From NCBI GenBank assembly GCA_020848035.1, contig JADLAX010000007.1:37577-101576 (forward strand): a stretch of DNA of 64,000 bases, in the 5' to 3' direction. Within the stretch, counting starts at the first letter, position 1. Each line of letters opens with the position of its first letter. Below the pieces are notes generated by a model. It saw only the letters and a program-made list of their open reading frames with translations, made no database searches and was not told the DNA's origin. Shown in pieces: positions 3,636 through 61,959 of the stretch. This stretch comes from Anaerolineae bacterium (lineage in GTDB: Bacteria > Chloroflexota > Anaerolineae > Promineifilales > Promineifilaceae). Made by a program: the position numbers and the translations under genes.

Positions 3636-4238
3636 ATGCTCAGTATTCACAACTTACTCCAACACTACATCTACGATGGCACCCTGCCAGAACCAAACCC
3701 GCCAGGGTATCAGTACATCATGGCGGGCAATGGCATCTTCATCCAGGCAGATAGCCCACTGCGACGCGTGGTTGTGCAAATCGCCCGAAAGCAAATTAAA
3801 GGGCTGCCAGCGCTTCAGCAGCAGATCAGGTTGAAGCACCCCCGGCTAAACGGCCGTACGCTGCCGGTGATCATCGAACACGCCAGACAGCGCCTGGACA
3901 TCGAGGTGGTTTACCACGTGACAGCTGACATGCGGATTCGCGCCATCGCCACGGGCACCAAGGCGTCTGTTGAGTTTGAGAATGTGCCTGATGAAGGGGT
4001 TATCCTGGAGGCTCATTCGCATAACACAATGCCTGCAGGATTTTCCTCAGTAGACAACAAGTATGAACAGCGGTTTCGATTCTATATGGTGGTGGGCAAT
4101 CTGCACGACCGTCCGCAGGTGGCCTTCCGGCTGGGGGTGTATGGGTATCACATCCCGCTACCGCTATCGGTTTTGTTTGACTTTAGCAACGTAAACATTG
4201 AATGGGACGAGGTGGGTCATGCTCAAGATAGATATTGA
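3636..4238 (+). CDS. PRTRC protein A, JAMM/MPN metallopeptidase
   Basis: A 200-residue protein with an exact JAMM motif: E125, then H127-x-H129, seven residues, S137, two residues, D140 (EAHSHNTMPAGFSSVD). This zinc site is typical of deubiquitinase-like peptidases, including the JAB protein of PRTRC cassettes. An N-terminal domain of about 80 residues precedes it. A ribosome site AGAGGAG is at 3622. Its likely job is to trim or remove the ubiquitin-like protein encoded at 1.3 kb. It overlaps the E1-like gene by 20 bases. Confidence 0.75.
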   Translation: MLSIHNLLQHYIYDGTLPEPNPPGYQYIMAGNGIFIQADSPLRRVVVQIARKQIKGLPALQQQIRLKHPRLNGRTLPVIIEHARQRLDIEVVYHVTADMRIRAIATGTKASVEFENVPDEGVILEAHSHNTMPAGFSSVDNKYEQRFRFYMVVGNLHDRPQVAFRLGVYGYHIPLPLSVLFDFSNVNIEWDEVGHAQDRY

Positions 4239-5145
4239 AAAACGATATCGGGTGATGGTTCCCGATTTTCAATTTGTGCAGCTTGTGGTTGCCGGGGTGG
4301 GGGGAACTGGCTCAGCCGTAGCCATCGATCTGGCACGCCTGGCATATCACTGCCAGGAGAATGGACTACCGGTGATGATGCAGCTGGTTGACGGCGACAA
4401 GGTGGAACCAAAAAATGTCGGACGCCAGCAGTTCTCGATGTACGAGGTCGGTGAAAACAAGGCGACGTCCATGGCGCGGCGGCTGAACCTCTGGCTTGGG
4501 CTGGATATAACGGGCACCCCCAAGATGCTAACAGAAAAAACGAAACTCATCTTCAACGACGGCCGTATGAAGCCGCTGCGAATCATTGTGGGTGCAGTAG
4601 ACAACCATAAGGCGCGCCGGGCCATTGCCAAACATGCGCAGAAATCTGGCGCATGGTGGGTGGATGCGGGCAACGGCGAATTCAAGGGCCAGGTTCTACT
4701 CGGCAATTATCCGCAGGGTGGGATTGAGGTAGCCGAGGACCTGGCCCTGATGAACGGGTTACCCGCTCCAGACAAACAGATGCCGGAGCTGCTTGAAGAA
4801 GAGGACAAACCAACGCTGGAGTTCGAGGATTGTGCCTTACGCATCTTACGCGATGAGCAGAGCATCAACATCAATCGGTTGATGGCCACGTATGCGGCGC
4901 AGGTGGTTTACGACCTGATCATCAAGCGGGAGTTGGATTACATGGCGATTCATACCAGCTTCCGGCCGCCCAGCACAACGGCCGTGCCTGTCACCCGCCG
5001 CACGCTTGAGCGGTATGGCGAAGTGAAGGAAGTGCCCGCAAAGTACGACCCCAAGGACATGGACCCAGAGGAGTTTGACGACGAAGAGGATTTTGAACAG
5101 TGGTTGCTGGACATGGAAATGGAAGGCGAGGAGGAGCTGCCGTAA
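4219..5145 (+). CDS. E1-like ThiF-family adenylyltransferase (PRTRC ThiF)
   Basis: A 308-residue protein. The start at 4219 is preferred to 4198 because GAGG lies six bases upstream. Residues 26-31 are the nucleotide loop GVGGTG; residues 57-71 (VDGDKVEPKNVGRQQ) match the E1 signature with Asp, Asn and Arg that bind ATP and adenylate; K81 and D128 fit the remaining conserved positions. C205 in FEDCALRI is the candidate catalytic cysteine. The acidic C-terminus is an extension. It should activate the C-terminus of the ubiquitin-like partner and pass it to the E2-like protein. The stop shares one base with the next start. Confidence 0.8.
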   Translation: MLKIDIEKRYRVMVPDFQFVQLVVAGVGGTGSAVAIDLARLAYHCQENGLPVMMQLVDGDKVEPKNVGRQQFSMYEVGENKATSMARRLNLWLGLDITGTPKMLTEKTKLIFNDGRMKPLRIIVGAVDNHKARRAIAKHAQKSGAWWVDAGNGEFKGQVLLGNYPQGGIEVAEDLALMNGLPAPDKQMPELLEEEDKPTLEFEDCALRILRDEQSININRLMATYAAQVVYDLIIKRELDYMAIHTSFRPPSTTAVPVTRRTLERYGEVKEVPAKYDPKDMDPEEFDDEEDFEQWLLDMEMEGEEELP

Positions 5146-5540: not shown

Positions 5541-6112
5541 AGTTGGGTCGCTACCGGTTGATCGTCCTGGATCTGGCTTCTGTTTTGCATCGAGACAACG
5601 GCCATTTTCACCTGATGCCCTCCGCGCAAGAGTGGCTGGCACAGCAGCCAATGCGCGCTCCGGATCAGACGCCGTTCATTGCAGTGGTTGAATACCTGCC
5701 CATTGCCGTGGGATCCAGGTACACGCCGCTTGCATCCAGACTGACACGCCGGTTGCCCATCGATGGAGCCAGGTCGCTGCTCGGCCGGTGGCCGGACCCG
5801 GCTGTGCTGCGCCTGTGCCAACGTCTTTATGGCAACGGCCCCAGCCTGCTTCTGGGCAACTCTCAACTTCATTTTGTGGCGGCCCAGTCAGTTGGCTTTG
5901 ATTTCTGTTTTGTTCAGGCACTCTTTTCACCGAGCAAGCAGGTGCAGGCAGGCGACCCCACGGCACGATGGTGCCCGCGCTGTGGGCCGAAGTCTCTGTT
6001 AGTGGTCGGTGGTCAAAACGAAGACAAGTTGACCTGCTCATCTTGTGGCTACCGTACCGATGCGCCTGAGTCCATCAAATTGTTGAATAGCGGCGCTGCA
6101 CGGTTGCTATGA
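5531..6112 (+). CDS. Degenerate HAD-like protein with C-terminal zinc ribbon
   Basis: A 193-residue protein starting at the ATG at 5531, overlapping the previous gene. The N-terminus LIVLDLASVL resembles HAD motif I without the second Asp, and GNSQLHFVAAQSVGF resembles the HAD motif GDSxxDxxAAxxAG with both Asp replaced by Asn and His. The catalytic acids therefore look lost. The C-terminus is a four-Cys zinc ribbon: CPRCG, then CSSCG. It is likely a binding or regulatory protein rather than a phosphatase. HAD membership is my inference from pattern. Confidence 0.5.
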   Translation: MSIELGRYRLIVLDLASVLHRDNGHFHLMPSAQEWLAQQPMRAPDQTPFIAVVEYLPIAVGSRYTPLASRLTRRLPIDGARSLLGRWPDPAVLRLCQRLYGNGPSLLLGNSQLHFVAAQSVGFDFCFVQALFSPSKQVQAGDPTARWCPRCGPKSLLVVGGQNEDKLTCSSCGYRTDAPESIKLLNSGAARLL

Positions 6113-6131
6113 AACCGTTTGAAACTATAAT
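6104..6131 (+). promoter_or_regulatory. Candidate promoter for the prenyl-synthase gene
   Basis: TTGCTA and TATAAT are separated by 16 bp, 27 bases before the start codon at 6158. The spacer contains GAAACCGTTTGAAAC, an imperfect inverted repeat that could be an operator. This makes the synthase gene independent of the PRTRC operon upstream. Confidence 0.45.
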
Positions 6132-6157
6132 TTGGGAAACCTTGGGAGAGGTGCTTT

Positions 6158-7096
6158 ATGCATATAGAGAAAACCCGTTTGTGTGGTGAATCGGCAATGG
6201 CCAATTATGATTGGCCGTTACTGCGGCGATTGTGGGAAGAGGCGACCAGTAAGCCGCGCCCCAGCTGGTACTTGCCGGAGCTGGTGACCATGTGCTTTGT
6301 GGACCAGTGCGACGAGGAAGTGTCGGCCAAGTTGGCCGCAGCGCTGGGGATGGCTCAATTGGCAATCAAGTTAATCGACGACTTGCTTGATGCTGAGCCA
6401 GGTGGGGTACAGGAACAGGCCAGCGCTGGGGAGGTGGCCAACATTGCCTGTGCCTTTCAGGCTTTTTCTTCCGACCTGGCGCTTACGTCGTTTCATCCAA
6501 ATACACCTTTTGGTAAGCCTGCTGCAGCTATCATTGCCCGGCTACTGCATGAGACGGCCTTTGGCCAAAAGCTAGACTCATCTGAGGCGTTTACAGAGGA
6601 AGAATATTGGGTGACCGTGCAGTGGAAATCTACGCCATTCTACAGGCACGCTTTTGCCTTGGGCGCGCTGCTGGCGCGGCATCATGGGGCCACTGTCGAT
6701 GTGCAGTTGATTCGGTCACTGGGGACGATTTTTGGCGAGATGGTGCAGGTGATTGACGACATGGTGGATGTAATGGCTACACCGGCGACCGGCGATTGGC
6801 ATCGCAGCAACAATCTACTCATTCTGTTTGCAGAATTGACCGATGAGCACGGCCGTTTCGCAGAGCTAAAAACGGCAGTTCAGGGCGGTGCCGACCCCGA
6901 AACAGCCCAGCAGTATTTAATCGACTGTGGGGCAGTGACTTACTGTGAGCACGTTGTGAAGGGGAAGTATGAAAGGGCGATGGAGCTTCTGGCTATTTTG
7001 AAGATTGAAGATAGTCCGTTGCGGAAATTATTTGACAGCCACTTGAGCGCCGTCTTAGTACCAACCAAAGGGCCAGACAGCATTCGCCTCGTTTAA
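6158..7096 (+). CDS. ComQ-like polyprenyl synthase
   Basis: A 312-residue isoprenyl-diphosphate-synthase fold. Both Asp-rich motifs are present: DDLLD at residues 74-78 and DDMVD at 200-204, which bind Mg and the prenyl diphosphate. KSTPFY at 157-162 fits the conserved KT/KS segment between them. GAGAGG lies six bases before the ATG. A housekeeping role in isoprenoid synthesis is possible. However, the gene is followed by a convergent mini-ORF with a Trp-rich C-terminus and then by a membrane histidine kinase and a response regulator. That is the content of the Bacillus comQXPA locus, in which ComQ prenylates a Trp of the ComX peptide. Family call is strong; the ComQ-like role is an inference from context. 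Confidence 0.7.
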   Translation: MHIEKTRLCGESAMANYDWPLLRRLWEEATSKPRPSWYLPELVTMCFVDQCDEEVSAKLAAALGMAQLAIKLIDDLLDAEPGGVQEQASAGEVANIACAFQAFSSDLALTSFHPNTPFGKPAAAIIARLLHETAFGQKLDSSEAFTEEEYWVTVQWKSTPFYRHAFALGALLARHHGATVDVQLIRSLGTIFGEMVQVIDDMVDVMATPATGDWHRSNNLLILFAELTDEHGRFAELKTAVQGGADPETAQQYLIDCGAVTYCEHVVKGKYERAMELLAILKIEDSPLRKLFDSHLSAVLVPTKGPDSIRLV

Positions 7097-7183
7097 CTGG
7101 GCACGAAGTTCTGCAACGGTTAACCTTGGTTTTTCAGGCTTACTTTTGGCGAAATCAGTAATCGACAAGATGTTGCTATTCAC
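7055..7183 (-). CDS. Candidate ComX-like prepeptide, 42 residues
   Basis: A 42-codon ORF starting GTG, with AGAGAGG six bases upstream, and ending in the residues AVWPFGWY followed by TAA. W37 and W41 are close to the C-terminus, as is the prenylated Trp of ComX pheromones. The body is short, charged and helical (LTVAELRAQLNEAN), with no signal peptide, also as in ComX. The last 42 bases overlap the end of the prenyl-synthase gene tail to tail, and its start is divergent from the kinase gene. It is too short for default gene callers. Position, start signal and C-terminus support it; chance cannot be excluded without comparison to relatives. Confidence 0.6.
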   Translation of the reverse strand: MNSNILSITDFAKSKPEKPRLTVAELRAQLNEANAVWPFGWY

Positions 7184-7197
7184 TGTTTACCTCTCTG

Positions 7198-7219
7198 AGC
7201 TACGAATCTAAGCTACGAA
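7198..7219. promoter_or_regulatory. Direct repeat AGCTACGAA between divergent peptide and kinase genes
   Basis: AGCTACGAA occurs at 7198-7206 and again at 7211-7219, 13 bases apart, in the short gap between the two divergent start codons. It is well placed as a binding site for the response regulator or a repressor that controls both genes. Confidence 0.4.
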
Positions 7220-7228
7220 CTGGATAGA

Positions 7229-9538
7229 ATGATGCTGCATTATAGCATAAGACGCCTTTTAATTGCCTTAGTCCTTTTGTCTTTTGTGGTTGCCGCCTAT
7301 TTTTCGGCGCGCTACATCATTACGCCAGCGGTTATGATGACCGCCACGGACAAGGGGTTGGTGATTTACGATCAGCCCGAGTGTGATGTGTGCAGCCTTG
7401 AAATAGGCGATATCGTGGTGGCAATTGAGGGGGTAGAATATGAGCCGGGTGTTTTTCTGGCTCCATTTGCGGGCTTTACAAATGGTGACGTGGTGAACAT
7501 GTCGGTGCTGCGGGGCGGGGAGCGGGTGGAGGCGCAGCTGCGCATCCCTGCGTCTGACGGGTCTGAGGTGTTTGTAAAGCTGCTGGTCTTTGTATTCTGG
7601 ATGCCGTTTTGGCTGAGCGCTGCCTGGCTGGCGTATTTTGCGCCGTTGGACAAGCGGGCCATTACGATGGCGGCTATGTTTTCGGTGTATGCCGTCTGGG
7701 TGGTGGCCGGGCTGGTGTCGTCGGCGTTTGTGTCGGCCGCTTCGGTAGTAGTGCACGTGGCTACCTGGATGCTGGTGCCACTGACGGTACAGGTGCATTG
7801 GGTATCGCCCAGCCCACTGCACTGGCGGGTGCCTCGATGGACGGCCGTGGGTTTCTACGGGGTGTTTGCTGTGCTGGTAGTAGCGGAGCTGTTTCAGATG
7901 GTGCCTCGCCAGCTGTTCAGCATTGGCACGGTTTTGATGGTGCTGGCTCCATTTGTGCTGCTGCCACTACACCGGGATAAGGCGCGCCTGAACGCACGCC
8001 GCATGATGTTGATGGGGGTGGTTACATTGACGGTGCCCCTGGTTGCCTGGCTGCTGATTTCTTTCAATACAGAAACCAGCAGCAGCGCCTCGTCGGTAAA
8101 TCTGATGCTGGTGGGGGGGTCGGCGCTGCTGGCGCTGCCGGTGTTTCCGCTGCTTTACGTATATGCCAATTACCGCCAGTATTTTTCGGCCAAAATGGAG
8201 CAGCGGTCATGGCGGGTGTTGGTGTTGTTGGTTTATATCTCCCTAATTCTGGTGGCGATTACAGCGGCAATCACCGTGGCCGGGCGGTCGCTGTCTATAA
8301 ACGATCAGGCGATCAACTTGAGCCTGATTACCTCGACGATTATTGGGGTGGCCGTGGCGCTGGGAACAAACAGTGCGCAGAGCTGGATGAAGCGCTTTAC
8401 CTACGGCGATTTTGAATCGCGCATTAACCTGGCTTCGGTTCGTTTTTCGACGCAGATGACGGAGCTGACGGCTCCGGGCGACTTGGAAGCATTTCTGGCA
8501 GCCGAAACGCATGCCCAGCTGGGCGTGACAGCCTCGGCGCTGTACCTGGCCAGCCCAGAGCTGGTGTTGAAATATGTGGTGGGCGCGGCAGAGGGCGCGA
8601 CAAAAGCCCCAGAGACGATCAGTCCTAATAACGACATTGTGGCGGGGTTGGGGAAGTATCGGCCGTATGTGGCGGGCAGCAGCCTGCCCTGGGCCAGGCT
8701 GTGCGTTCCTCTGTTGGTAGAGAAAGACCTGGTGGGGGTATGGTTATTGGGGCCACGGGAGAACGATGATTTTTATGCAGCCGGGCACATCCAGCAGCTG
8801 CAAGCGCTGGGCAACCAGGTAGCAGCGGTGGTGGAAATGCGGCGGCAGCAGCGCGAGATTGAGCGGCAGGTGGCCACGTTACTGGTGAAGGAAAAGGAGG
8901 CGGCGTTGGGGCGGGTAGTCACCTCTGTGGCCCACCAGTTCCGCAATCCGCTGCAAGTTATTATGGGGGCGCTGGAAGCGGACAATGATTACCAAAAGCC
9001 GGAAAACGAGTGGCTGGCATTGGCCTACCAGCGGGCGGAGCGGCTGTCTGACGTAGTTCGTTCTATTCAACGGTTTGCCACGATTAATGACCCAGGAAAC
9101 GAAGCGGCGCAGCGGATTGATGTGCAGGAGGCGGTTAAAGAGGCGATGCTGCTCATTGAGCACCGGTTGAAAGAACAGGGGATTACGCTAGCTCTGGAAG
9201 ATGGCGAACCGTGTTTTGTGATGATGGGGGCGTCTGAGCTGACGCAGGCAGTTCTGAACTTGTTGGAGAATGCCAGCGACGCACAAGAAGGGGGCTGCAT
9301 CCATATTGAGGTGAGCCAACGCAATGGCACTGTTGTGCTGCGGGTGCGCGATGAGGGAGCGGGGATTGCTGACGGTGACATTGAGCGGGTATTTGAGCCG
9401 TTGTTCACGACAAAAAACGGGCTCGGTTTGGGATTGTGGATTACGCGTAGTATTATTGAACGAAATCGCGGGACAATAAGCGCCCAGAGTGCTTTGGGGA
9501 AAGGTTCTATTTTTACAATAACACTCCCAGCAGTGTAA
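7229..9538 (+). CDS. Membrane sensor histidine kinase, ComP-like architecture
   Basis: A 769-residue kinase. An N-terminal span (about 8-28) is followed by a PDZ-like extracytoplasmic domain (about 40-110, with LEIGDIVVAIEG), a block of about eight spans (115-390), a GAF-like region and a coiled segment. The phospho-acceptor is H569 in VAHQFRNPLQ. The ATPase domain has the N box LLENASD, DEGAGI and GLGLGLWI. B. subtilis ComP also combines a PDZ domain and many spans and is of similar length, although this kinase core looks closer to the NtrB/HPK4 type. It likely senses an external signal, perhaps the prenylated peptide. The regulator gene follows after 11 bases. Confidence 0.8.
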   Translation: MMLHYSIRRLLIALVLLSFVVAAYFSARYIITPAVMMTATDKGLVIYDQPECDVCSLEIGDIVVAIEGVEYEPGVFLAPFAGFTNGDVVNMSVLRGGERVEAQLRIPASDGSEVFVKLLVFVFWMPFWLSAAWLAYFAPLDKRAITMAAMFSVYAVWVVAGLVSSAFVSAASVVVHVATWMLVPLTVQVHWVSPSPLHWRVPRWTAVGFYGVFAVLVVAELFQMVPRQLFSIGTVLMVLAPFVLLPLHRDKARLNARRMMLMGVVTLTVPLVAWLLISFNTETSSSASSVNLMLVGGSALLALPVFPLLYVYANYRQYFSAKMEQRSWRVLVLLVYISLILVAITAAITVAGRSLSINDQAINLSLITSTIIGVAVALGTNSAQSWMKRFTYGDFESRINLASVRFSTQMTELTAPGDLEAFLAAETHAQLGVTASALYLASPELVLKYVVGAAEGATKAPETISPNNDIVAGLGKYRPYVAGSSLPWARLCVPLLVEKDLVGVWLLGPRENDDFYAAGHIQQLQALGNQVAAVVEMRRQQREIERQVATLLVKEKEAALGRVVTSVAHQFRNPLQVIMGALEADNDYQKPENEWLALAYQRAERLSDVVRSIQRFATINDPGNEAAQRIDVQEAVKEAMLLIEHRLKEQGITLALEDGEPCFVMMGASELTQAVLNLLENASDAQEGGCIHIEVSQRNGTVVLRVRDEGAGIADGDIERVFEPLFTTKNGLGLGLWITRSIIERNRGTISAQSALGKGSIFTITLPAV

Positions 9539-9549
9539 GAGAGGTTCCG

Positions 9550-10281
9550 ATGGCCCACATTTTGGTGGTTGATGATGAGGACGATATTTGCCGCCTTATC
9601 CGGGATGCCTTTTATAGAAAAGGGCATGACGTGGATGTGGCGCACAATGGGCGGCAGGCTCTGGAATTGCTGCGACAATCCTTTTATGATGCGATGATAC
9701 TTGACCTGGTGATGCCCGGCATGACCGGCGAGCAGGTTTTGGATCATCGTGAGGAGTATGCGGAAACGGCCGTTATCATTTTGACGGCGCACAGTTCGAC
9801 CAGCTCAGCAGTGAAGGCGCTGCGCACACAGGTGTCTGATTACTTGGAGAAGCCGGTTGAGCTGGCTCGGCTGGTGGAGATGGTGGAATCTTATATTGTT
9901 TGGCACAGCTACAAGGATTTCAAAGTCAATATTCAGTCACAGCGCGCCTTCTATAAGGGCGAGCTCATCGAAGGGATGACGGCAGGGCTGTTTTACATTT
10001 TTTCGATTTTTGTGAAATATCCCGGCCGGTACTTTACGCATCAGGAGCTGGTGACGCAGATGGTGAAAGAGTACCCGGATTATTTTGAAAGCGACACCAG
10101 GGCTTACATAGCCAAAAAGGTTAATGCCGTTGGGGGAATTGACCGAATAACCGCCACACGCTACCTACGCCCGCAGATATCGCGATTGCGGCGGAAGGTG
10201 CTGGACCCGTTGGTGGGGCGCGAGGTGATTACGGATCAGAAGGGGGTGGGGTTTACGTGGGGCCGTTTTGATCTTGTGTAA
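9550..10281 (+). CDS. Response regulator, receiver plus winged-helix-like domain
   Basis: A 243-residue regulator with GAGAGG before the ATG. The receiver has the acid pair D8/D9, phospho-acceptor D52 in LDLVMPG and the KP motif in DYLEKP. The C-terminal region ends in an OmpR-like recognition segment (YLRPQISRLRRKV ... GVGFTWG), with an unusually long insertion before it. It differs from ComA, which has a LuxR-type domain. It is co-transcribed with the kinase and is the probable output of the signalling locus. Its DNA target may be the repeat at 7198 or other operators in this element (inference). Confidence 0.85.
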   Translation: MAHILVVDDEDDICRLIRDAFYRKGHDVDVAHNGRQALELLRQSFYDAMILDLVMPGMTGEQVLDHREEYAETAVIILTAHSSTSSAVKALRTQVSDYLEKPVELARLVEMVESYIVWHSYKDFKVNIQSQRAFYKGELIEGMTAGLFYIFSIFVKYPGRYFTHQELVTQMVKEYPDYFESDTRAYIAKKVNAVGGIDRITATRYLRPQISRLRRKVLDPLVGREVITDQKGVGFTWGRFDLV

Positions 10282-35937: not shown

Positions 35938-36107
35938 AAAGGACTAAAGTGGGTACGTGTACCCCGTTGATGAGCAGCGTCGGCCAATTTGGGAAACGGT
36001 TGATGACGTATTGAAATTCTGCCGCATGTTGGTCAGGAACGTCCAAAACCAGAGCTGGCTTGTAGAGGCTGTTGTCGAAAGATAAAGTTGCGGCGTAGAT
36101 ATTCTAA
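35938..36107 (-). pseudogene. Truncated remnant of a coding sequence
   Basis: On the minus strand an open frame without start codon encodes about 56 residues, including SLYKPALVLDVPDQHAAEFQ and NRFPNWPTLLING, and ends in TAG. The composition is higher in GC than the flanking AT-rich DNA. It looks like the 3' end of a gene cut off when the island formed. The rest of the 35.8-36.2 kb gap shows nothing recognisable. Confidence 0.4.
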
Positions 36108-36225
36108 ACGCAGGTAAATTAAATATTTAACTGTGTTTAGCTCTCCCTTAGATCTCGTTTTTTAACAAAACTTGGAAACGAAATAATTTGGTGATAAGCC
36201 CTCTAACCTTACTTAAAGAAGTGAA

Positions 36226-37587
36226 TCATTTGATGCTCACTACATGTTTGGTGCGAGCAACAATAGTATTAGATTTAATAATTTCGCAAATCATATAATG
36301 AGAACCCCTATACCCCGTTTGCTCCCACTTATGAGGCTCTTGCCAAGAGGACATTTGATAATGACCCAAATCACTTGCTTCACGGGCTTCTTTTCCGTGA
36401 TTTTCTACCGTCCATTTAATATCATATGGTGGGGAGACAGTCGTATTAACTACTGAAAAACGTATCCAAGTATATTTTGGAACAGGTTGCCCTCCACTAA
36501 GATGCTTTCTTGTTAACTCTCCGCCCTTTTGTTTAGATAACTTTGCTACAATTCTTACCGTGTCTGTTAGGTCAGGTAAGTTTGGCAAATCTATTTCTGA
36601 TATCTCTGCTTCCATAAGAGGGTCAAAAGCATCTTCTTCAGCTTCTGTCAACACCTCAGATAGGTGTAAAGACTTTACAGATGATGGAGCCTCAGGAAAA
36701 TCACTACCGAATACTTTTCGCCATATAGTCGAGCTTTCTCCAATAGTCTTTGCTTCTAAAGCTTGTTTAGAAAGTTCCAATGACTCTTCAACAATTTCCC
36801 TGAAAAGAGCTACTTCATCAGTTTCAAATGTCAACTTTAGATATTCTTTAGGTAAACCAGGATTAGGAACCTGCGGAAAAACACCTTTTTTTAGCAAGGG
36901 TCCACATGTATCCATAAGGTTTTGAAGGAAGTTGGTGAATGCCTCAGCGTATGAGGGCGAATCAGGATCTTGATAAGTTGCTACCAATGCTTCAAGCGTG
37001 AACCCTTTAGGTTTAGGTCGTTCAATGTTACGTTTTTGTTTGGCTTGGTACCTGTACCAGGCTTTTACTATTTTTACGAGTGGAATATAACGACCTGCGC
37101 ACTCCTTATTGATTCGCGTTGCTGCTTTCATATGGGCTTTTGGATAAGTAAATATCCATTCTTTTTGCTTGCGGTCTGGAATATGGAGTTTTTCTTCTTC
37201 ATCATCAATAGGAACTACTGGAACAGCATCTATTGTGGTGCTTGACATGTCGATGCGAACTGAGCGGCGTTGATAGGCTGTCTTACCTTTGTACCCAAGA
37301 TTTTGAAGGACATCTTTCAGCCTTCTTACTACTTGTTCCGGTGTATAATTTTCAATATCTATCTCAAGGAGAATACAAATATCAACATCCTTTATCGGTT
37401 GAATTGCCGTGTTGCGAATATATGATCCATATAGAAAGCTGCCAGAGAACCATGAGGAAAACAAAGCATCATTGGATTGGCCAAGCCGTGTTCTTAAGGT
37501 TTTGTGTAGTTGGATGGCTCGTTCGCGGCTCGCACGAGTAGGCTGTATTTTCTGAAGGTATTTGGCAAAATAACTAGGTAACTCCAT
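36226..37587 (-). CDS. cdnD-like: CBASS cGAS/DncV-like nucleotidyltransferase (CD-NTase)
   Basis: A 453-residue enzyme. SGSFLYGSYIRNTAIQPIKD followed by VDI gives the Gly-Ser motif and metal ligands D67 and D69; D121 in TIDAVPVVP is the third acid. The C-terminal 100 residues (KGGELTRKHLSGGQ ... WEQTGYRGSHYM) fit the AGS-C/SMODS C-terminal sensor domain. Such enzymes make cyclic di- or trinucleotides when a phage infects, and these activate effectors. Here the Cap4-type nuclease is directly upstream. DNA is AT-rich compared with the rest of the window, indicating acquisition. The clade assignment is not certain. Confidence 0.8.
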   Translation of the reverse strand: MELPSYFAKYLQKIQPTRASRERAIQLHKTLRTRLGQSNDALFSSWFSGSFLYGSYIRNTAIQPIKDVDICILLEIDIENYTPEQVVRRLKDVLQNLGYKGKTAYQRRSVRIDMSSTTIDAVPVVPIDDEEEKLHIPDRKQKEWIFTYPKAHMKAATRINKECAGRYIPLVKIVKAWYRYQAKQKRNIERPKPKGFTLEALVATYQDPDSPSYAEAFTNFLQNLMDTCGPLLKKGVFPQVPNPGLPKEYLKLTFETDEVALFREIVEESLELSKQALEAKTIGESSTIWRKVFGSDFPEAPSSVKSLHLSEVLTEAEEDAFDPLMEAEISEIDLPNLPDLTDTVRIVAKLSKQKGGELTRKHLSGGQPVPKYTWIRFSVVNTTVSPPYDIKWTVENHGKEAREASDLGHYQMSSWQEPHKWEQTGYRGSHYMICEIIKSNTIVARTKHVVSIK

Positions 37588-37627
37588 GGATTTTCCTTTG
37601 CCATGCTAGACTGGCGTTATTTATAAG

Positions 37628-39061
37628 TTATGTATGAAGTCTGCACGTTTGAACGTAATTGTTTGGTCCTGTAAATTCGTAACATTGAATTGTTGTTGTT
37701 GCGTTCAGTCGATGGCCCAATAGCAAAGCAACAAAGGATGGGACAGCACAAAAAAGATGTATATAGCTGGCGTTTGTTTCCGAAAGCGATTGAAGAATAG
37801 CTTTTTTTGTTTGAGCCACAATTGAGTTGGCTTGTTGAGCGTTTTGTATAGAGAATGAGCAAGAAATGTTCAATAGCGGAACATGTTTTCCCCAGCTGGT
37901 CCTAACGAAACTTTCTACAGCCTGACGGATGTCATTCGGAATCCCGATAGAAATGATGAGATCGTCACCTTGTGTCTGGGGAAACTCGACGTTTAAAGAG
38001 ACATCAAGTTCCGTCTTACTATGATCGTTCGTTTGCCACCATGAACCCTCGCGATGCTGCATCATGACTGTAAATCCACTAGTTGCCGAGAAAATATTTC
38101 CAATTGCAAAGGCCGTTGAAAGTTTGCGATTTCCAGTTAATCTAATCAGTCGATTGCTTCGGTACTTAAGAATGAAATCCTTCGTTATATTAAGTTGTCC
38201 AACCACCCGTGCATTCCATTCTTCTGTTGATGGATAAGATCGGTTGTGTCCTCCAAAAAAATCAACAAATTCGAGAACAATTTCTTTTTTCCTTGCATCA
38301 TCTTGTTTGATCGAGGTGTGTAAACGAGTAAATGCGAGGGGGATCTGCCGATCTGAGGGAATACATGCACGTATTACCTCTTCTATTGACTTTCGTGTAA
38401 TTGGCGTGTTGCGTGGTGCCGTTAGATTGAGTAGCTTGTAATAAATATCTGAAACCGAAGAATATGGCACTTGACGATACTCTGGTAAACACTCCCCAAA
38501 ATTCTGTCGAAAAAGAGCTTCACCATGTTCTTGCAAAGAACTGTATCCTGGATCTATTAGTACTCGGTGAAACAGAAAAAGGGCATATTCTTTTGGTTTG
38601 TTTGCACGCTTACATTGAGTCACAAAATCGGCAAATGAGTTTTCTGTAACGCCAGATTCACTTGGATAAAAATCGTATGGAGAACTAAGTCGCCGCAAGC
38701 TATGTTGAAGGGAGGCGATATCATCGGAAATGTCTGGGGCGACCAAACGAAACCAACCAAAGGTATTGGGGCTTCCCTGATCCGACTCGTAAAAACGATC
38801 AATCTCAGCCCAAAATACTGAAGGGGTTAGACGATGGTTTTTAACCTCGACCATCTCAATGCGTTCACCAAATTTTGGAGAAAACAGCTTTATTTCTATA
38901 TCACTTATTCCTTCACGAAGAAAACTGATAAAGCCGTCCCACTCTAGCCAACATGGGATTTGGGAAACTAGATAGAAATCCTGAAAATCAAAACCTCTGC
39001 CCGCATTATCGCCACCTCGCGATTCTGGCTCCAGAAGGGATGGTTTGTTTATGTCTGTCAT
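37628..39061 (-). CDS. cap4: Cap4-type effector: DUF4297-like nuclease plus SAVED domain
   Basis: A 477-residue protein starting at ATG 39061. The N-terminal nuclease has GRGFDFQDF, D54 in SDIEI and the E72-x-K74 motif of a restriction-like fold (EMVEVKNHRL). The C-terminal 170 residues match SAVED: KLSTAFAIGNIFSATSGF, DLIISIGIP and SYIHLFCAVPSFVALLLGH. In known CBASS systems SAVED binds the cyclic oligonucleotide and the nuclease then degrades DNA indiscriminately. Placed between the cyclase and a conserved helical protein, all on the minus strand. Confidence 0.8.
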   Translation of the reverse strand: MTDINKPSLLEPESRGGDNAGRGFDFQDFYLVSQIPCWLEWDGFISFLREGISDIEIKLFSPKFGERIEMVEVKNHRLTPSVFWAEIDRFYESDQGSPNTFGWFRLVAPDISDDIASLQHSLRRLSSPYDFYPSESGVTENSFADFVTQCKRANKPKEYALFLFHRVLIDPGYSSLQEHGEALFRQNFGECLPEYRQVPYSSVSDIYYKLLNLTAPRNTPITRKSIEEVIRACIPSDRQIPLAFTRLHTSIKQDDARKKEIVLEFVDFFGGHNRSYPSTEEWNARVVGQLNITKDFILKYRSNRLIRLTGNRKLSTAFAIGNIFSATSGFTVMMQHREGSWWQTNDHSKTELDVSLNVEFPQTQGDDLIISIGIPNDIRQAVESFVRTSWGKHVPLLNISCSFSIQNAQQANSIVAQTKKAILQSLSETNASYIHLFCAVPSFVALLLGHRLNATTTIQCYEFTGPNNYVQTCRLHT

Positions 39062-39088
39062 TCCACAATTGTCCCTTACCACTAAAAA

Positions 39089-39793
39089 CTAAATAGAGTC
39101 TTTTATATACTTGATAAAATCCTTCCCGATTTTTGTGGTCCTACTTGTAAGAAGTCCTCCACTACTCATCATGGCATGCAAGCTATCAGTATTCACAAGG
39201 CCCCTAACACTTAAATCTTGCCAAATTTGATCATATAGTGCGCGATTACCAGTTAATTCGGGATAAGCTTTTTCTAAGATAGTAGATAAACCGCTAGCTA
39301 ATTGCTTTCTGTGTGCATAATCTTTCACTTTAGGATTAATAGCAGGCTCGTGGAAGAAGTCTAAGATACGGATGTGCCAAACTGTAAAAGTGTCTATAAA
39401 GGTAAGGAATATTTGTTGCAGCGATTGTTCAGGAGCTGATGGAAGTGCTGCATTTAAGATCGCGTTTCGCAAGGCGTCTCTTTTTTCCTGTTGACTGCTC
39501 CGTGAAGCAATCTGCGTTGCCTGCAAAACTGTATCAATAAAAGCATCATTAGTTTGCAGTTCCTCCAAATTTACCCCTCGATTTGTTTGTAATTCGTACA
39601 GGACTTTGCCAACCTCGTCCATCCAATCTCGACGCCGTTTTTCTAATGGAGGAGTTACAAAATATTGAAATAGCTCGGATGCGCCTGGAATAATTGAAAG
39701 TATGCCCGTGGTAACAAGGTATGCAGTATCAGATGATGTGGTATCTGGTGATTTAAGTCTTTCTATTTCTGATTTCTTTGGATCATTTTTCAT
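39089..39793 (-). CDS. Helical protein of unknown function, first gene of the CBASS island
   Basis: A 234-residue protein starting at ATG 39793 (a TTG at 39811 is in frame). Near the N-terminus is a hydrophobic segment (TTGILSIIPGASELFQYFVT) followed by PPLEKRRRDWM; the rest is helical. Proteins with this segment-plus-PPLEKR pattern are, to my recollection, frequent beside defence genes, but no activity is known to me. It is transcribed with the nuclease and cyclase. Upstream lies a direct repeat ATTATAGTTAGTATTATAG (minus strand, about 39819-39837), a possible control site. Confidence 0.6.
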   Translation of the reverse strand: MKNDPKKSEIERLKSPDTTSSDTAYLVTTGILSIIPGASELFQYFVTPPLEKRRRDWMDEVGKVLYELQTNRGVNLEELQTNDAFIDTVLQATQIASRSSQQEKRDALRNAILNAALPSAPEQSLQQIFLTFIDTFTVWHIRILDFFHEPAINPKVKDYAHRKQLASGLSTILEKAYPELTGNRALYDQIWQDLSVRGLVNTDSLHAMMSSGGLLTSRTTKIGKDFIKYIKDSI

Positions 39794-39925
39794 AAGATGT
39801 AGTTTTCCCAAATGAAACGCTATAATACTAACTATAATTAAGTTGTTTTGTGCTTACAAGACCTAAAGTGATTCTTCAGTAATCAGGCCCCAATAAACTA
39901 TCTCAATAGTTTCTGAATCTCCGCA

Positions 39926-40050
39926 AAGGCACTGTAAAGGCATCTATTTCGAGCGGGCGTACTGCACCTATCTATTCATACTGGCCCCTGAGTTTTCGCA
40001 AGCGGGCTTGCAAAGGCACCTTCAAGGCAATTTGGAGGTGCTTTTGTTTT
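39926..40050. repeat. Intergenic repeat R, copy 3, with terminator
   Basis: GCAAAGGCACTGTAAAGGC, then TATTTCGAGCGGGCGTACTGC, CATACTGGCCCCTGAG and TTTCGCAAGCGGGCTTGCAAA reproduce the R unit. It ends in a terminator (AAGGCACCTTCAAGG/TTTGGAGGTGCTTTTG). It marks the right edge of the AT-rich CBASS island. Confidence 0.7.
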
Positions 40051-46668: not shown

Positions 46669-47592
46669 ATGAACGGATTAGCAGTTTCTTCTCGCAGTGA
46701 CAGTTATCACCAGGCCCTGGCCATCATCGATGCGGCCGATTTGGCCGACAGCACAAAGTTGAAGTACCGGCGCGTGCTGGAATGTTATTTGGACGAAGGC
46801 CACCCACTCACCGACTCCGCCCAGCTGGCGCGATTCGCCACCTCACTTTCCAATTCCCGACGTGCCCAACTGAAAGCGGCTGTAAAGCTCTGGTCTAACG
46901 CGATGATTACGCAGGCCAAGAGCATGGCCACGCCGGATAATATCGACACGGTGAATGCGTCTATCTACCGCTTCCAGGCGCTGCAAACGGCCGTTACGGT
47001 CAAGACGGCCAAAGGTGAGAAAGCTCACACGTGGTTGTCTCAGGCGGAGGTCTCGGCGCTGATGAGCGGGGTCACCGGCGGCAGTAACCGCAATTGGCGG
47101 GACCGGGTAAGCCTGGCGCTGCTGGTGGGCGCGGGCCTGCGGCGCGCCGAGGCAGTAGAGATGGAGTTTGGCAACGTGCGGCGCCAGCCGGTTCGGGGGA
47201 AAGTGCGGTCTGTCCTGGAAGTGCATGGCAAGGGCGCGAAAGATCGCGTGGTGCCCATCTCTGAACAGCTGGCCGGGATGTTGGAGACGTGGCGGGAAAA
47301 GTGTGGCAACGGCCGTATTCTGCGGTCGGTGCGGAAGAACGATGCGGTTGGGGAATCCCTGTCGGATATTGGGCTGTTTGGGATCGTGCGGCAGTATGGC
47401 GGCTTAATTGGCCACCCAGAGTTGGACCCGCATGACCTGCGACGCACCTACGCGCAGATTGGTTACGAGAACGGCGTGCCACTGACCCAGATGAGTAAGC
47501 TCCTGGGCCACAGCTCGATAGATACAACGCGACGGTATCTGAACCTGGACCTGAACCTAGAAGTGACAGCCAGTGATTTTGTGAGGTTGTAG
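46669..47592 (+). CDS. int: Tyrosine recombinase / integrase
   Basis: A 307-residue recombinase with GGGGAGATTT before the ATG. The N-terminal SAM-like DNA-binding half is followed by the catalytic domain with R158 (GLRRAE), K188 (HGKGAKDR), H255-x2-R258 (HDLRRT), H281 (LLGHSS) and Y290 (TRRYL), a complete set. It could integrate the element or resolve multimers of a plasmid form. It contains two ACGGCCGT copies and so belongs to the long-term resident DNA. Confidence 0.9.
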   Translation: MNGLAVSSRSDSYHQALAIIDAADLADSTKLKYRRVLECYLDEGHPLTDSAQLARFATSLSNSRRAQLKAAVKLWSNAMITQAKSMATPDNIDTVNASIYRFQALQTAVTVKTAKGEKAHTWLSQAEVSALMSGVTGGSNRNWRDRVSLALLVGAGLRRAEAVEMEFGNVRRQPVRGKVRSVLEVHGKGAKDRVVPISEQLAGMLETWREKCGNGRILRSVRKNDAVGESLSDIGLFGIVRQYGGLIGHPELDPHDLRRTYAQIGYENGVPLTQMSKLLGHSSIDTTRRYLNLDLNLEVTASDFVRL

Positions 47593-57554: not shown

Positions 57555-59255
57555 ATGGTTTCACCTGTTCCAATCGCTCCAGCTGCCAACAGCCTGGCTT
57601 ATAAGCGTCAAATCGCCTCCGCCTTGATGAAGAAGGCACGGCGGCAGCAACGGCCGTTACCAACCCGGCGCGGCGGCAATCCGATTGATCTGCTGACATG
57701 GAACTGCCGCTACCGCCAACAGCTGCGCCCGGGCGAGTGGTTTGATTTGCCAAATCACAAGTACCTGGTGGACATGTTCGCCGAGGTGGCCAGGGAAATT
57801 GTGTACATGAAGGCGGGTCAGATTGGGGTTAGCGAGCTGCTCATCTCGTACGCGCTGCACGCCTGTGACCAGCGCAGTGCCGACGTTCTTTACCTGATGC
57901 CCACCAACACCGACGTGAGCGACTTTGGTCAGTCGCGTTTTGGGCCAGCTCTGGAAGCAAGCCCATACCTCGCGTCCATCGTGGTTGGGGCTTCTGCTTC
58001 CAAGAATCAGCGCGGCGCCGACAAGGTAACGCTGAAGCGCATCCGGGAAAACTTTCTGTATTTGCGCGGTGGGTCGGTGGGCAATGACGGCCGTGCCCGG
58101 CAGCTGAAGTCCATTCCGGTGGATGTTTTGGTTGGGGATGAGATTGACGAGATGGATGAGCGGGCCATGCCGATCGGCCGTAAGCGCCTGGGTCACAGCC
58201 CGATTAAGGAAGTGCGCCAGGCATCTACCCCAACGTATCACGGGGTTGGGATTCATGCCCAATGGGAGCTAAGCGATCAGCGGGAGTGGTTTGTCCCCTG
58301 CCCCCACTGTGGCAAGTGGCAGCAGTTGGACATCAACAACATTGTGCAGGTGTGGGATGACTTAGGACGGCCGATTGTATGGCACGGCCAGGAAGATGAC
58401 CGGGCTTACATTGCCTGCACCAGGTGCGGTAAGGAAGTGGACCGGCTGGCCAAGGGCGAGTGGGTACCCAAGTATCCAGGACGTTCTATTGTTGGATTCC
58501 ATCCCACCAAGCTGATGTCTGGGCACACCCCCCTGCTTGCCGTGGTGCTGAACTTCAACACCGTCGACGAGACGGCCCGGCGCGAAGCGTTTAACCAGGA
58601 TTTGGGGCTGCCGTACACCCCGAAAGGCGGCCGTTTGACCGAAGAGGATCTGCGCGCGTGCGAGCGCGAATTTGCGCATGGGCCGCTAGATTATGATGCC
58701 GGTGCCGCTATGGGCGTGGACGTGGGCAAGCTCCTGCACGTGGTCATCCGGGCGCGGCCGGACGAAAAAGGGGAGCGGCGCCAGCTGTTTGCCGGAGCCG
58801 TGATGAACTTCGATGAGGTTAGCCGTCTTATGCAGCAATACCAGGTGAACACCTGCGTGGTGGACGCACTACCGGAAACGCGATCTGCGCGGGCTTTTCA
58901 GGCGGAACACAAGGATAAGAAGGTGTGGTTGTGCCATTACGTGAGCGCGGAAAGTGGGGCCAAGAAAAGCGGGCCAGTGCAGTGGGATGCCCGGCATGGC
59001 AATGTAAACGCTGACCGCACCTGGACGCTGGATATCACCTTTTCCCGGTTTTACGACAAGAGCAATGTGCTGCCCGCTAACATCAAGAGCGTGGCGGATT
59101 ATCACAAGCATTTATTGGAGCCAACGCGCGTTGTGCATGAGAAGCCTGACGGAACAGTCGTTGGGAAGTATGTGGGGGATGGAGATGACCATTTTGCCCA
59201 CGCTGAAAATTACTGCGCGATCGCGGCGATGCGGCCCACAGGGTGGGCAAGATAG
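57555..59255 (+). CDS. terL: Terminase large subunit, GpA/lambda type
   Basis: A 566-residue protein. The ATPase site KAGQIGVSE is a variant P-loop like that of lambda GpA, and VLVGDEIDEMD is the Walker B. A CPHCGKWQ ... CTRCGKEV zinc pair, typical of the GpA group, follows. The nuclease domain begins GVDVGKLL with its first metal Asp. It cuts and pumps DNA into proheads. Length is somewhat below lambda GpA. Confidence 0.9.
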   Translation: MVSPVPIAPAANSLAYKRQIASALMKKARRQQRPLPTRRGGNPIDLLTWNCRYRQQLRPGEWFDLPNHKYLVDMFAEVAREIVYMKAGQIGVSELLISYALHACDQRSADVLYLMPTNTDVSDFGQSRFGPALEASPYLASIVVGASASKNQRGADKVTLKRIRENFLYLRGGSVGNDGRARQLKSIPVDVLVGDEIDEMDERAMPIGRKRLGHSPIKEVRQASTPTYHGVGIHAQWELSDQREWFVPCPHCGKWQQLDINNIVQVWDDLGRPIVWHGQEDDRAYIACTRCGKEVDRLAKGEWVPKYPGRSIVGFHPTKLMSGHTPLLAVVLNFNTVDETARREAFNQDLGLPYTPKGGRLTEEDLRACEREFAHGPLDYDAGAAMGVDVGKLLHVVIRARPDEKGERRQLFAGAVMNFDEVSRLMQQYQVNTCVVDALPETRSARAFQAEHKDKKVWLCHYVSAESGAKKSGPVQWDARHGNVNADRTWTLDITFSRFYDKSNVLPANIKSVADYHKHLLEPTRVVHEKPDGTVVGKYVGDGDDHFAHAENYCAIAAMRPTGWAR

Positions 59256-61332: not shown

Positions 61333-61959
61333 ATGGATGCGTCGCAGCCCCCTACCCTTGAGGAGTTGAATGCCATCGTTGAGCGCCTGACCGTTGAGGT
61401 GCATCAGCTGAAGATGTCTAAGGCTGAGCTGCGGGCGATGGTGGTTTCGGTTTTTCAGCAGGAACAGGAAGCGCTGCATAAGCGGGTTTTTGACACAACC
61501 GCATTATTTGAGGCCCGACTGGATGCCGAGCTGACAAATATGTGGGAGGAGGTATCCAAGGGCCAGGTTCTTACACGCCAGGGGTTTGAAAAGCAAAGTG
61601 AACGCATGGCCTACCTGGAAAAAATTGTAGAGCGATGCTGCGAAGAGATGGCTGGAAAACCTCGTAAGCGTAAAGGTGATACCGGTCAGTTTTTCCGGGA
61701 GCAGACACTCCTTTGGGCAAAGAAGCTGGCATTGCTCATGGACCAAACGCTTGATATGGATGATATCCGGGCGATTTGTTTTGAGTTCGGTGTGGACTTT
61801 GAGCATCTGAAAGGCGAGGAGAAGCGAGCCAAGATCAGACAGCTCATCATCTACTTTTTTCAACGTAAGACGCTGCCGCTTTTGGCAGACCATTTACAAC
61901 TTATTCGGCCGAACATGCAATGGCCGCTAACGGCCGTTGAGGCCACACTCGATTTGTGA
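61333..61959 (+). CDS. Hypothetical coiled-coil protein
   Basis: A 208-residue protein. The first 110 residues are a long helix (EELNAIVERLTVEVHQLKMS ...) likely to form a coiled coil. The C-terminal half contains MDDIRAICFEFGVDFEHLKG, resembling an effector-associated helical domain that binds partners. Head or host-interaction role unknown. The last codons carry ACGGCCGT. Confidence 0.6.
   Translation: MDASQPPTLEELNAIVERLTVEVHQLKMSKAELRAMVVSVFQQEQEALHKRVFDTTALFEARLDAELTNMWEEVSKGQVLTRQGFEKQSERMAYLEKIVERCCEEMAGKPRKRKGDTGQFFREQTLLWAKKLALLMDQTLDMDDIRAICFEFGVDFEHLKGEEKRAKIRQLIIYFFQRKTLPLLADHLQLIRPNMQWPLTAVEATLDL

What the first reader, a model, noticed from the sequence alone, without database searches (positions are those of the whole stretch)
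6104..10281. A ComQXPA-like prenylated-peptide signalling locus with a hidden peptide gene in a phage-like element
Sequence shows a polyprenyl synthase with both Asp-rich motifs, a membrane histidine kinase with a PDZ-like domain and about nine spans, and a response regulator. Between synthase and kinase, on the opposite strand, lies a 42-codon ORF (7183 to 7055) with a good ribosome site, a GTG start and the C-terminus AVWPFGWY. In Bacillus, ComQ prenylates a Trp near the C-terminus of ComX, which ComP senses and ComA answers. The same four parts are present, but the peptide gene is reversed and overlaps the synthase tail to tail, and the regulator is not LuxR-type. I know this system only from Firmicutes; a copy on a mobile element would allow density-dependent control, like arbitrium but with a lipid-modified peptide.
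Basis: partly seen in the sequence, partly recalled or inferred. Interest (0 to 1): 0.93.

Follow-up and report, generated by a model that had tools for sequence, protein, structure and literature searches.

The report
Phage-borne lipid-peptide signalling locus
A circular phage-like DNA element found with a Chloroflexota bacterium carries a prenyl-synthase-family gene, a conserved tryptophan-ended short peptide gene, a membrane sensor kinase and a regulator, which together likely form a lipid-modified-peptide signalling system of the kind known from Bacillus.

Summary
In detail: synthase (6158-7096+), reversed 42-codon peptide gene (7183-7055-, ending AVWPFGWY), membrane kinase (7229-9538+), regulator (9550-10281+). 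The peptide is conserved: metagenome data hold two 42-aa relatives (79%, 83% identical), and a related synthase's tail is codon-for-codon compatible with the antisense of one of them (21 of 21; best of 200,000 shuffles 12). The locus belongs to a large, mostly Chloroflexota family: 50 of 55 distinct synthases have a Trp-tailed short ORF just upstream on the same strand, and 44 of 55 have a kinase with the same sensor region nearby. None of 62 family synthases has the Arg-Arg motif found in 14 of 18 comparison synthases. The contig is circular (127-bp end overlap) with terminase, tape-measure, integrase and antirepressor-like genes. Best reading: a ComQXPA-like prenylated-Trp peptide signalling system carried by a phage. 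Prenylation, export, sensing and any lysogeny role are inferred. It is not ComQXPA in the strict sense: SARM intact, no Pfam ComX match, regulator not LuxR-type, peptide gene reversed; the window peptide's leader is not detected by the family's leader profile. A 2014 census found comQXPA only in Firmicutes.

The parts
6104..6131 (+). promoter-like site TTGCTA-16-TATAAT ahead of the synthase
   Evidence: consensus match 10 of 12; 5 such sites in the region against 3.3 expected, so weak
6158..7096 (+). ComQ/trans-IDS-like synthase, predicted Trp prenyltransferase
   Evidence: Pfam PF00348; family alignment and motif counts; model pLDDT 94.0
6377..6391 (+). first Asp-rich motif DDLLD (residues 74-78)
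6755..6769 (+). second Asp-rich motif DDMVD (residues 200-204), with Gln197 three residues before
7055..7183 (-). 42-codon peptide gene, GTG start, ends AVWPFGWY; Trp37 at 7075-7073 and Trp41 at 7063-7061
   Evidence: sequence; homologues P0012 and P0013
7055..7096 (.). tail-to-tail overlap of peptide gene and synthase, codon registers aligned
   Evidence: same overlap compatible in P0004/P0012
7194..7219 (.). tandem 13-bp direct repeat between peptide gene and kinase, candidate regulator site
   Evidence: no second close copy in the contig
7229..9538 (+). membrane histidine kinase, predicted receptor; first ~430 residues are the family sensor region
   Evidence: Pfam; sensor homologues beside family synthases; model
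9550..10281 (+). response regulator, receiver plus weakly OmpR-like C-terminus
   Evidence: Pfam
46669..47592 (+). tyrosine integrase of the element
   Evidence: PF00589 1.5e-23, PHROG integrase
57555..59255 (+). terminase large subunit of the element
   Evidence: GpA_ATPase 1.4e-31, PHROG terminase 1.5e-93

Best explanation
This locus on a circular phage-like element is likely a ComQXPA-like signalling module in which the synthase-family enzyme would attach a prenyl group to a Trp near the C-terminus of the 42-aa peptide, and the adjacent membrane kinase would sense the released product and phosphorylate the regulator. Shown here: the four genes and their places; conservation of the reversed peptide in relatives; a family of synthases that nearly always sit beside a Trp-tailed short ORF and mostly beside a kinase with the same sensor region; the phage gene content and circular ends of the contig. 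Inferred: Trp as acceptor instead of IPP, trimming to a short C-terminal peptide, export, binding at the PDZ-like and membrane part, phosphotransfer, and use by the element to read the density of carrier cells for a lysis/lysogeny or induction decision.
For: Peptide: two 42-aa homologues aligned without gaps; outside the 13-codon overlap identity is 22 and 23 of the first 28 residues; P0004 tail compatible with the antisense of P0012 at 21 of 21 positions, best of 200,000 shuffles 12; the overlapped synthase tail 303-312 is under pLDDT 50. Family: Trp-tailed upstream ORF at 50 of 55 synthases; W-x(1-3)-W plus leader plus ribosome site 44 of 51, against 0 of 13 and 0 of 44 controls; dN/dS 0.08-0.23. 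Enzyme: Arg-Arg-Gly/Asn after the FARM 0 of 62 against 14 of 18; Gln197/Asp200/Asp204 as in PalQ (PMC10853753). Sensor: shared region beside 44 of 55 synthases; ComP too has a PDZ domain between its first two of ten spans (PMC9620489 passages). Element.
Against: The SARM is a full DDxxD; for Bacillus ComQ a change of Asn to Asp there drastically lowered activity and DDxx(D) is called unsuitable for Trp (PMC5331326). The family leader profile built without the window peptide does not detect it (0.5 bits; best of 712 other window ORFs 8.7), and the window peptide is the only one of 51 found that is reversed and downstream. No Pfam ComX match for six family peptides or the window's; the ComX search of 20 relatives was empty but so was its control. 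The fold equals ordinary prenyl diphosphate synthases. PDZ matches have poor E-values. No exporter or protease was identified beside the locus (not searched for specifically). Eleven of 55 loci show no such kinase in the DNA held. No second copy of the candidate operator.
Confidence: 0.72

Rival explanations
1. The peptide is prenylated but is a secreted lipopeptide product (for example an antimicrobial or membrane-active agent), not a density signal; kinase and regulator only tune its production.
For: RiPP-like layout; one family peptide weakly matches the Nif11 leader (17.4 bits, cut-off 23.8); prenylated peptides made by PalQ were used to raise antimicrobial activity (PMC13290415 passages).
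Against: No immunity or transport gene recognised among the proteins scanned at the locus; the sensor region is tied to the synthase family, as a receptor would be; ComX-like size and Trp place.
Confidence: 0.13
2. The element's peptide or sensor works across systems: the phage mimics or listens to the prenyl-peptide systems of its host rather than counting itself.
For: The same assembly encodes two further synthases with Trp-tailed peptides, on contigs C4 and C76; phage receptors for host signals are known (PMC11945551 passages).
Against: The element carries its own peptide, sensor and regulator; the peptide ends differ (AVWPFGWY, VWGWNWDW, DLWIRPTD); bin membership does not prove the host, and the bin has 7.31% contamination.
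Confidence: 0.08
3. The synthase is an ordinary isoprenoid enzyme, the two-component pair is unrelated, and the reversed ORF is a by-product of the synthase's codons.
For: Both Asp-rich motifs intact; fold of trans-prenyl diphosphate synthases; overlap of the ORF end with the synthase.
Against: Peptide conserved outside the overlap; family linkage to Trp-tailed ORFs with controls and to one sensor region; missing Arg-Arg motif in 62 of 62.
Confidence: 0.04

Closest known systems
ComQXPA of Bacillus subtilis and other Firmicutes (PMC5331326, PMC4008528, PMC9620489)
   Same: Prenyl-synthase-family enzyme with FARM, short peptide with Trp near the C-terminus, multi-span kinase with an extracellular beta domain after the first span, regulator next to it.
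   Different: Full SARM instead of NDxxx; 42-aa precursor without Pfam ComX match; HisKA kinase and OmpR-like regulator; peptide gene reversed and overlapping; on a phage-like element in another phylum.
'Unusual com-like loci' with hypothetical comX on the opposite strand (B. cereus VD102, BAG4X12-1, MSX-A1; L. fusiformis ZC1; PMC4008528)
   Same: Hypothetical comX between comQ and comP on the opposite strand, with a C-terminal Trp as the only likeness to ComX.
   Different: Firmicutes chromosomal predictions; no relation of sequence was tested here.
PalQ/PalX/PalP of Paenibacillus (PMC10853753)
   Same: Synthase-family Trp prenyltransferase with a Gln next to SARM Asp residues, precursor peptide and histidine kinase in one cluster.
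   Different: PalQ needs Trp as the very last residue and PalX has an NHLP leader; here Tyr follows the last Trp and no leader family matches.
Arbitrium and phage-borne agr genes (reviewed in PMC11945551)
   Same: Peptide communication genes carried by phages.
   Different: Arbitrium uses an unmodified peptide and an intracellular receptor (AimR); phage agr sets described there lack the response regulator; here a membrane kinase and regulator are both present and the peptide is predicted to be prenylated.

Membership tests
ComQXPA | ComQ-type enzyme of the trans-prenyl synthase superfamily with intact FARM | tested here: met
   PF00348; DDLLD at 74-78
ComQXPA | Pseudo-SARM (NDxxx or GDxxx) instead of DDxxD | tested here: not met
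   DDMVD at 200-204; DDxxD in 62 of 62 family members; requirement from PMC5331326
ComQXPA | ComX precursor recognised by Pfam PF05952 | tested here: not met
   No match at E <= 1 for the window peptide; the genome search with the family rang nowhere, controls included
ComQXPA | Trp at the 2nd to 4th position from the C-terminus | tested here: met
   Trp41 of 42 is 2nd from the end; Trp37 is 6th; range from PMC5331326
ComQXPA | ComP-like kinase: span, extracellular PDZ-like domain, further spans, kinase core | tested here: inconclusive
   Layout seen in the model; PDZ matches only at E about 0.04 or worse; no direct comparison with ComP sequence was possible
ComQXPA | LuxR-type (ComA-like) regulator | tested here: not met
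   No GerE match in the window; GerE in L027, L028 and second-class L157
ComQXPA | Four genes on one strand | tested here: not met
   Peptide gene on the opposite strand
ComQXPA | Secreted prenyl-Trp peptide activates the kinase at high density | not testable with these tools
   Needs experiment
PalQ/PalX | SARM Asp200/Asp204 and neighbouring Gln197 kept | tested here: met
   Q197, D200, D204 invariant in the alignment of 56; PalQ residues from PMC10853753. Canonical synthases share Q..DD too (18 of 18), so not diagnostic
PalQ/PalX | Trp as the last residue of the precursor | tested here: not met
   Window peptide ends WY; several family peptides do end in W
Arbitrium | Intracellular AimR receptor | not tested
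   The candidate receptor is a membrane kinase; the element was not searched for AimR-like proteins

The most novel reading that the evidence does not exclude
A Chloroflexota phage carries its own prenylated-peptide quorum system, a lipid counterpart of arbitrium read through a membrane two-component sensor, with which carrier cells are counted before the phage chooses lysis or lysogeny; it is a captured branch of a ComQXP-like superfamily widespread in Chloroflexota, of which the same assembly holds two further systems.
Probability: 0.4. Interest if true: 0.95.

Novelty: new variant of a known kind. Interest (0 to 1): 0.87.

Why it matters
Trp-prenylated peptide signalling is described from Firmicutes; a 2014 census found no comQXPA locus outside them (PMC4008528 abstract), and in my ten paper searches no listed title or abstract start reports it in Chloroflexota or on a phage. 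If right: (1) a large, mostly uncultured phylum has a whole family of lipid-peptide signals with readable C-terminal sequences; (2) Trp prenyltransferases that keep a full SARM become a large group to test against the ComQ rule; (3) a phage would have its own membrane-sensed lipid-peptide signal, so whether phages outside Bacillus count themselves becomes testable with synthetic peptides.
Full report
WHAT IS THERE. The window is G000:C7:37577-101576 of a 7.65-Mb assembly, 97.2% complete with 7.31% contamination. The records found for the family are mostly titled Chloroflexi or Anaerolineae MAGs. At 6158-7096 (+) lies a 312-aa protein of the polyprenyl synthetase family with DDLLD at 74-78 and DDMVD at 200-204. 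At 7183-7055 (-) a 42-codon ORF starts with GTG behind AGAGAGG and ends AVWPFGWY; its last 13 codons plus stop are the register-aligned antisense of the synthase end. At 7229-9538 (+) and 9550-10281 (+) lie a membrane histidine kinase and a response regulator.

IS THE REVERSED PEPTIDE REAL? A search of about 5.8 billion proteins with the 42 residues returned one match, P0012 (42 aa, 79% identical, 10 contigs). A search with both returned also P0013 (42 aa, 83%, NCBI source). The three align without gaps; 32 of 42 positions are the same in all three, among them ILSI at 5-8, LTVAELRAQL at 21-30 and WPFGWY at 37-42. The synthase search gave ten proteins: P0002 (99%, listed as the window's own) and nine relatives with 57-87% identity. 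P0004 (83%) has a C-terminal extension; each of its last 21 residues can be encoded by the reverse complement of a codon for the matching residue of P0012's last 21: 21 of 21, while 200,000 shuffles of P0012 reach at most 12 and seven other registers at most 6. The tails of P0003 and P0005 are compatible with the window peptide at 12 of 12 positions and with P0012 at 11 of 12. This is a protein-level test: that P0004 and P0012 come from one locus is inferred. The overlapped synthase tail (303-312) is under pLDDT 50, and P0006-P0011 end before it, so its conservation in the window, P0003, P0004 and P0005 is easier to explain by the peptide than by the enzyme (inference). DNA of these relatives was not available, so dN/dS of this peptide is untested.

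THE FAMILY. A scan of the genome collection with an alignment of six synthases gave 55 loci. With loci from 400 genomes of the phylum (19 of 400 genomes matched at E <= 0.001; seven matches below 1e-38, two of them in the own genome) and from 52 genomes of the family, and after removing copies and weak hits, 55 distinct synthases scoring at least 200 bits remained, the window included. For 49 of them a Trp-tailed short ORF of 42-87 codons was picked by eye from the listing (two) and verified as encoded upstream on the same strand, 46 of 49 with a GGAG/GAGG/AGGA box; L070 adds a fiftieth. Of the other five, three loci begin at the synthase, L095 has none that I could find, and one is the window. 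An automated count asking for ribosome site, leader motif and W-x(1-3)-W gives 44 of 51 loci with at least 450 nt upstream, 0 of 13 synthases with the Arg-Arg motif and 0 of 44 other large genes of the loci; with only Trp and ribosome site it gives 48, 3 and 9. Four same-genus C4-type orthologues (six pairs) and two further pairs give dN/dS 0.08-0.23. Records titled Thermoanaerobaculum sp. (L069), Thermoanaerobaculia (L089) and Deltaproteobacteria (L104) may be real outliers or binning.

SENSOR AND REGULATOR. The first 430 residues of the window kinase match kinases in family loci (best 1.9e-36), and a profile built from those hits finds one in the locus of 44 of 55 synthases. Not seen in the DNA held: L023, L033, L034, L035 (C4 type, each with a regulator nearby), L039, L042, L043, L089, L094, L104, L110. 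A regulator of at most 330 aa was found in 36 of 55. Two layouts recur: peptide-synthase-kinase on one strand, and peptide-synthase opposite to a flanking kinase and regulator. The kinase model shows helix 2-26, a beta domain and a membrane part; PDZ domains of HtrA/DegS/RseP proteins appear among its matches at poor E-values. ComP of B. amyloliquefaciens is modelled with ten spans and a PDZ domain between the first two (PMC9620489, passages). Of five regulators of other loci scanned, L027, L028 and second-class L157 carry a LuxR-type domain, L023 an OmpR-type one and L026 neither.

THE ELEMENT. Contig C7 has 101,576 bases; its first 127 equal its last 127, as expected of an assembled circle. 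It encodes a gpA-type terminase (PHROG 1.5e-93) and integrase, a tape measure protein (6.7e-41), minor tail proteins and a lytic enzyme, a P22-antirepressor/ORF6C protein, a DNA polymerase III clamp and a DnaA_N protein. It is phage-like with signs of a temperate life style (inference); capsid and portal were not identified. Its host is inferred from binning only. No similar synthase was found in 50,697 phage or 72,556 plasmid records or in the viral-contig scan.

MECHANISM. Shown: genes, conservation, linkage, element. Predicted: prenyl transfer to Trp41 (second from the end, within the range ComQ accepts) or Trp37 (sixth; PMC5331326, two of three parts read); trimming; export; binding to the kinase; phosphorylation of the regulator; feedback through the short divergent region with its tandem repeat. 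Speculative: use in a lysis/lysogeny or induction decision.

COMPARISON. It works like ComQXPA but is not filed as ComQXPA: the intact SARM, missing Pfam ComX match, non-LuxR regulator and reversed peptide gene are tested differences. Prior art for reversal: four Firmicutes strains with a hypothetical comX on the opposite strand (PMC4008528, abstract and first part of Results read). PalQ keeps SARM Asp residues, and its D200A/D204A mutant retained activity (PMC10853753, passages), so a SARM does not exclude Trp prenylation. Of the review PMC13290415 I saw passages and section 2.4; of PMC8895600 passages: it reports the HK-RR pair, not the full pathway, in Chloroflexi. The paper library leaves out most subscription papers and all preprints.

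A SECOND CLASS. On contig C76 the same assembly has a more distant synthase without the Arg-Arg motif, preceded by a 76-aa ORF ending DLWIRPTD and followed by a HisKA_3 kinase and a LuxR-type regulator, all on one strand. Of eight further loci fetched for this class, five have a Trp-tailed upstream ORF (L158, L159, L160, L162, L163), three do not show a credible one (L161, L164, L165), and the kinase sensor profile matches in six of the eight. With the C4 system (peptide ending VWGWNWDW) the assembly would hold three systems.

VERDICT. Chemistry and signalling await experiment.

Noticed in passing
L157 (G000:C76) 8115-9062 + with upstream ORF (L003:930-1160 +); L158, L159, L160, L162, L163: A second class of synthases without the Arg-Arg motif, with about 68-92-codon Trp-tailed upstream ORFs, then a kinase and regulators on the same strand.
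   Followed up: partly
L104:5586-5849 +: Peptide in a record titled Deltaproteobacteria with three W-x-x-W stretches (LWAQW, WTPW, WEPW), as if one precursor held several cores.
   Followed up: no
L069:5653-5823 + and 7186-7389 +: Two similar Trp-tailed peptides on either side of one synthase in a Thermoanaerobaculum MAG.
   Followed up: no
window 12176, 13449, 13612, 14723, 16696, 29989, 40565, 43335, 44748, 53118, 53547, 54458 (+): Recurrent GGTTAGACCAAANG, several copies running into or ending just before the ATG of a gene; 12 matches with up to 2 mismatches against 1.1 expected. A shared translation or transcription start signal of the element?
   Followed up: partly
window 36226-39082 (-): CBASS-like pair: oligonucleotide cyclase (1.8e-67) and SAVED-endonuclease effector (6.8e-75), in a low-GC stretch (36001-40000: 40.5%) of the phage-like element.
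   Followed up: partly
window 3636-5145 (+): DUF2016/JAB (both below cut-off) and ThiF genes directly upstream of the synthase, which recall a PRTRC cassette (name recalled, not tested).
   Followed up: no
window 61333-61959 (+): Effector-associated domain 7 (2.2e-14) near the terminase.
   Followed up: no
L002:2260-2433 (-): The C4-type peptide weakly matches the Nif11 leader (17.4 bits, cut-off 23.8), hinting at a link to RiPP leaders.
   Followed up: no
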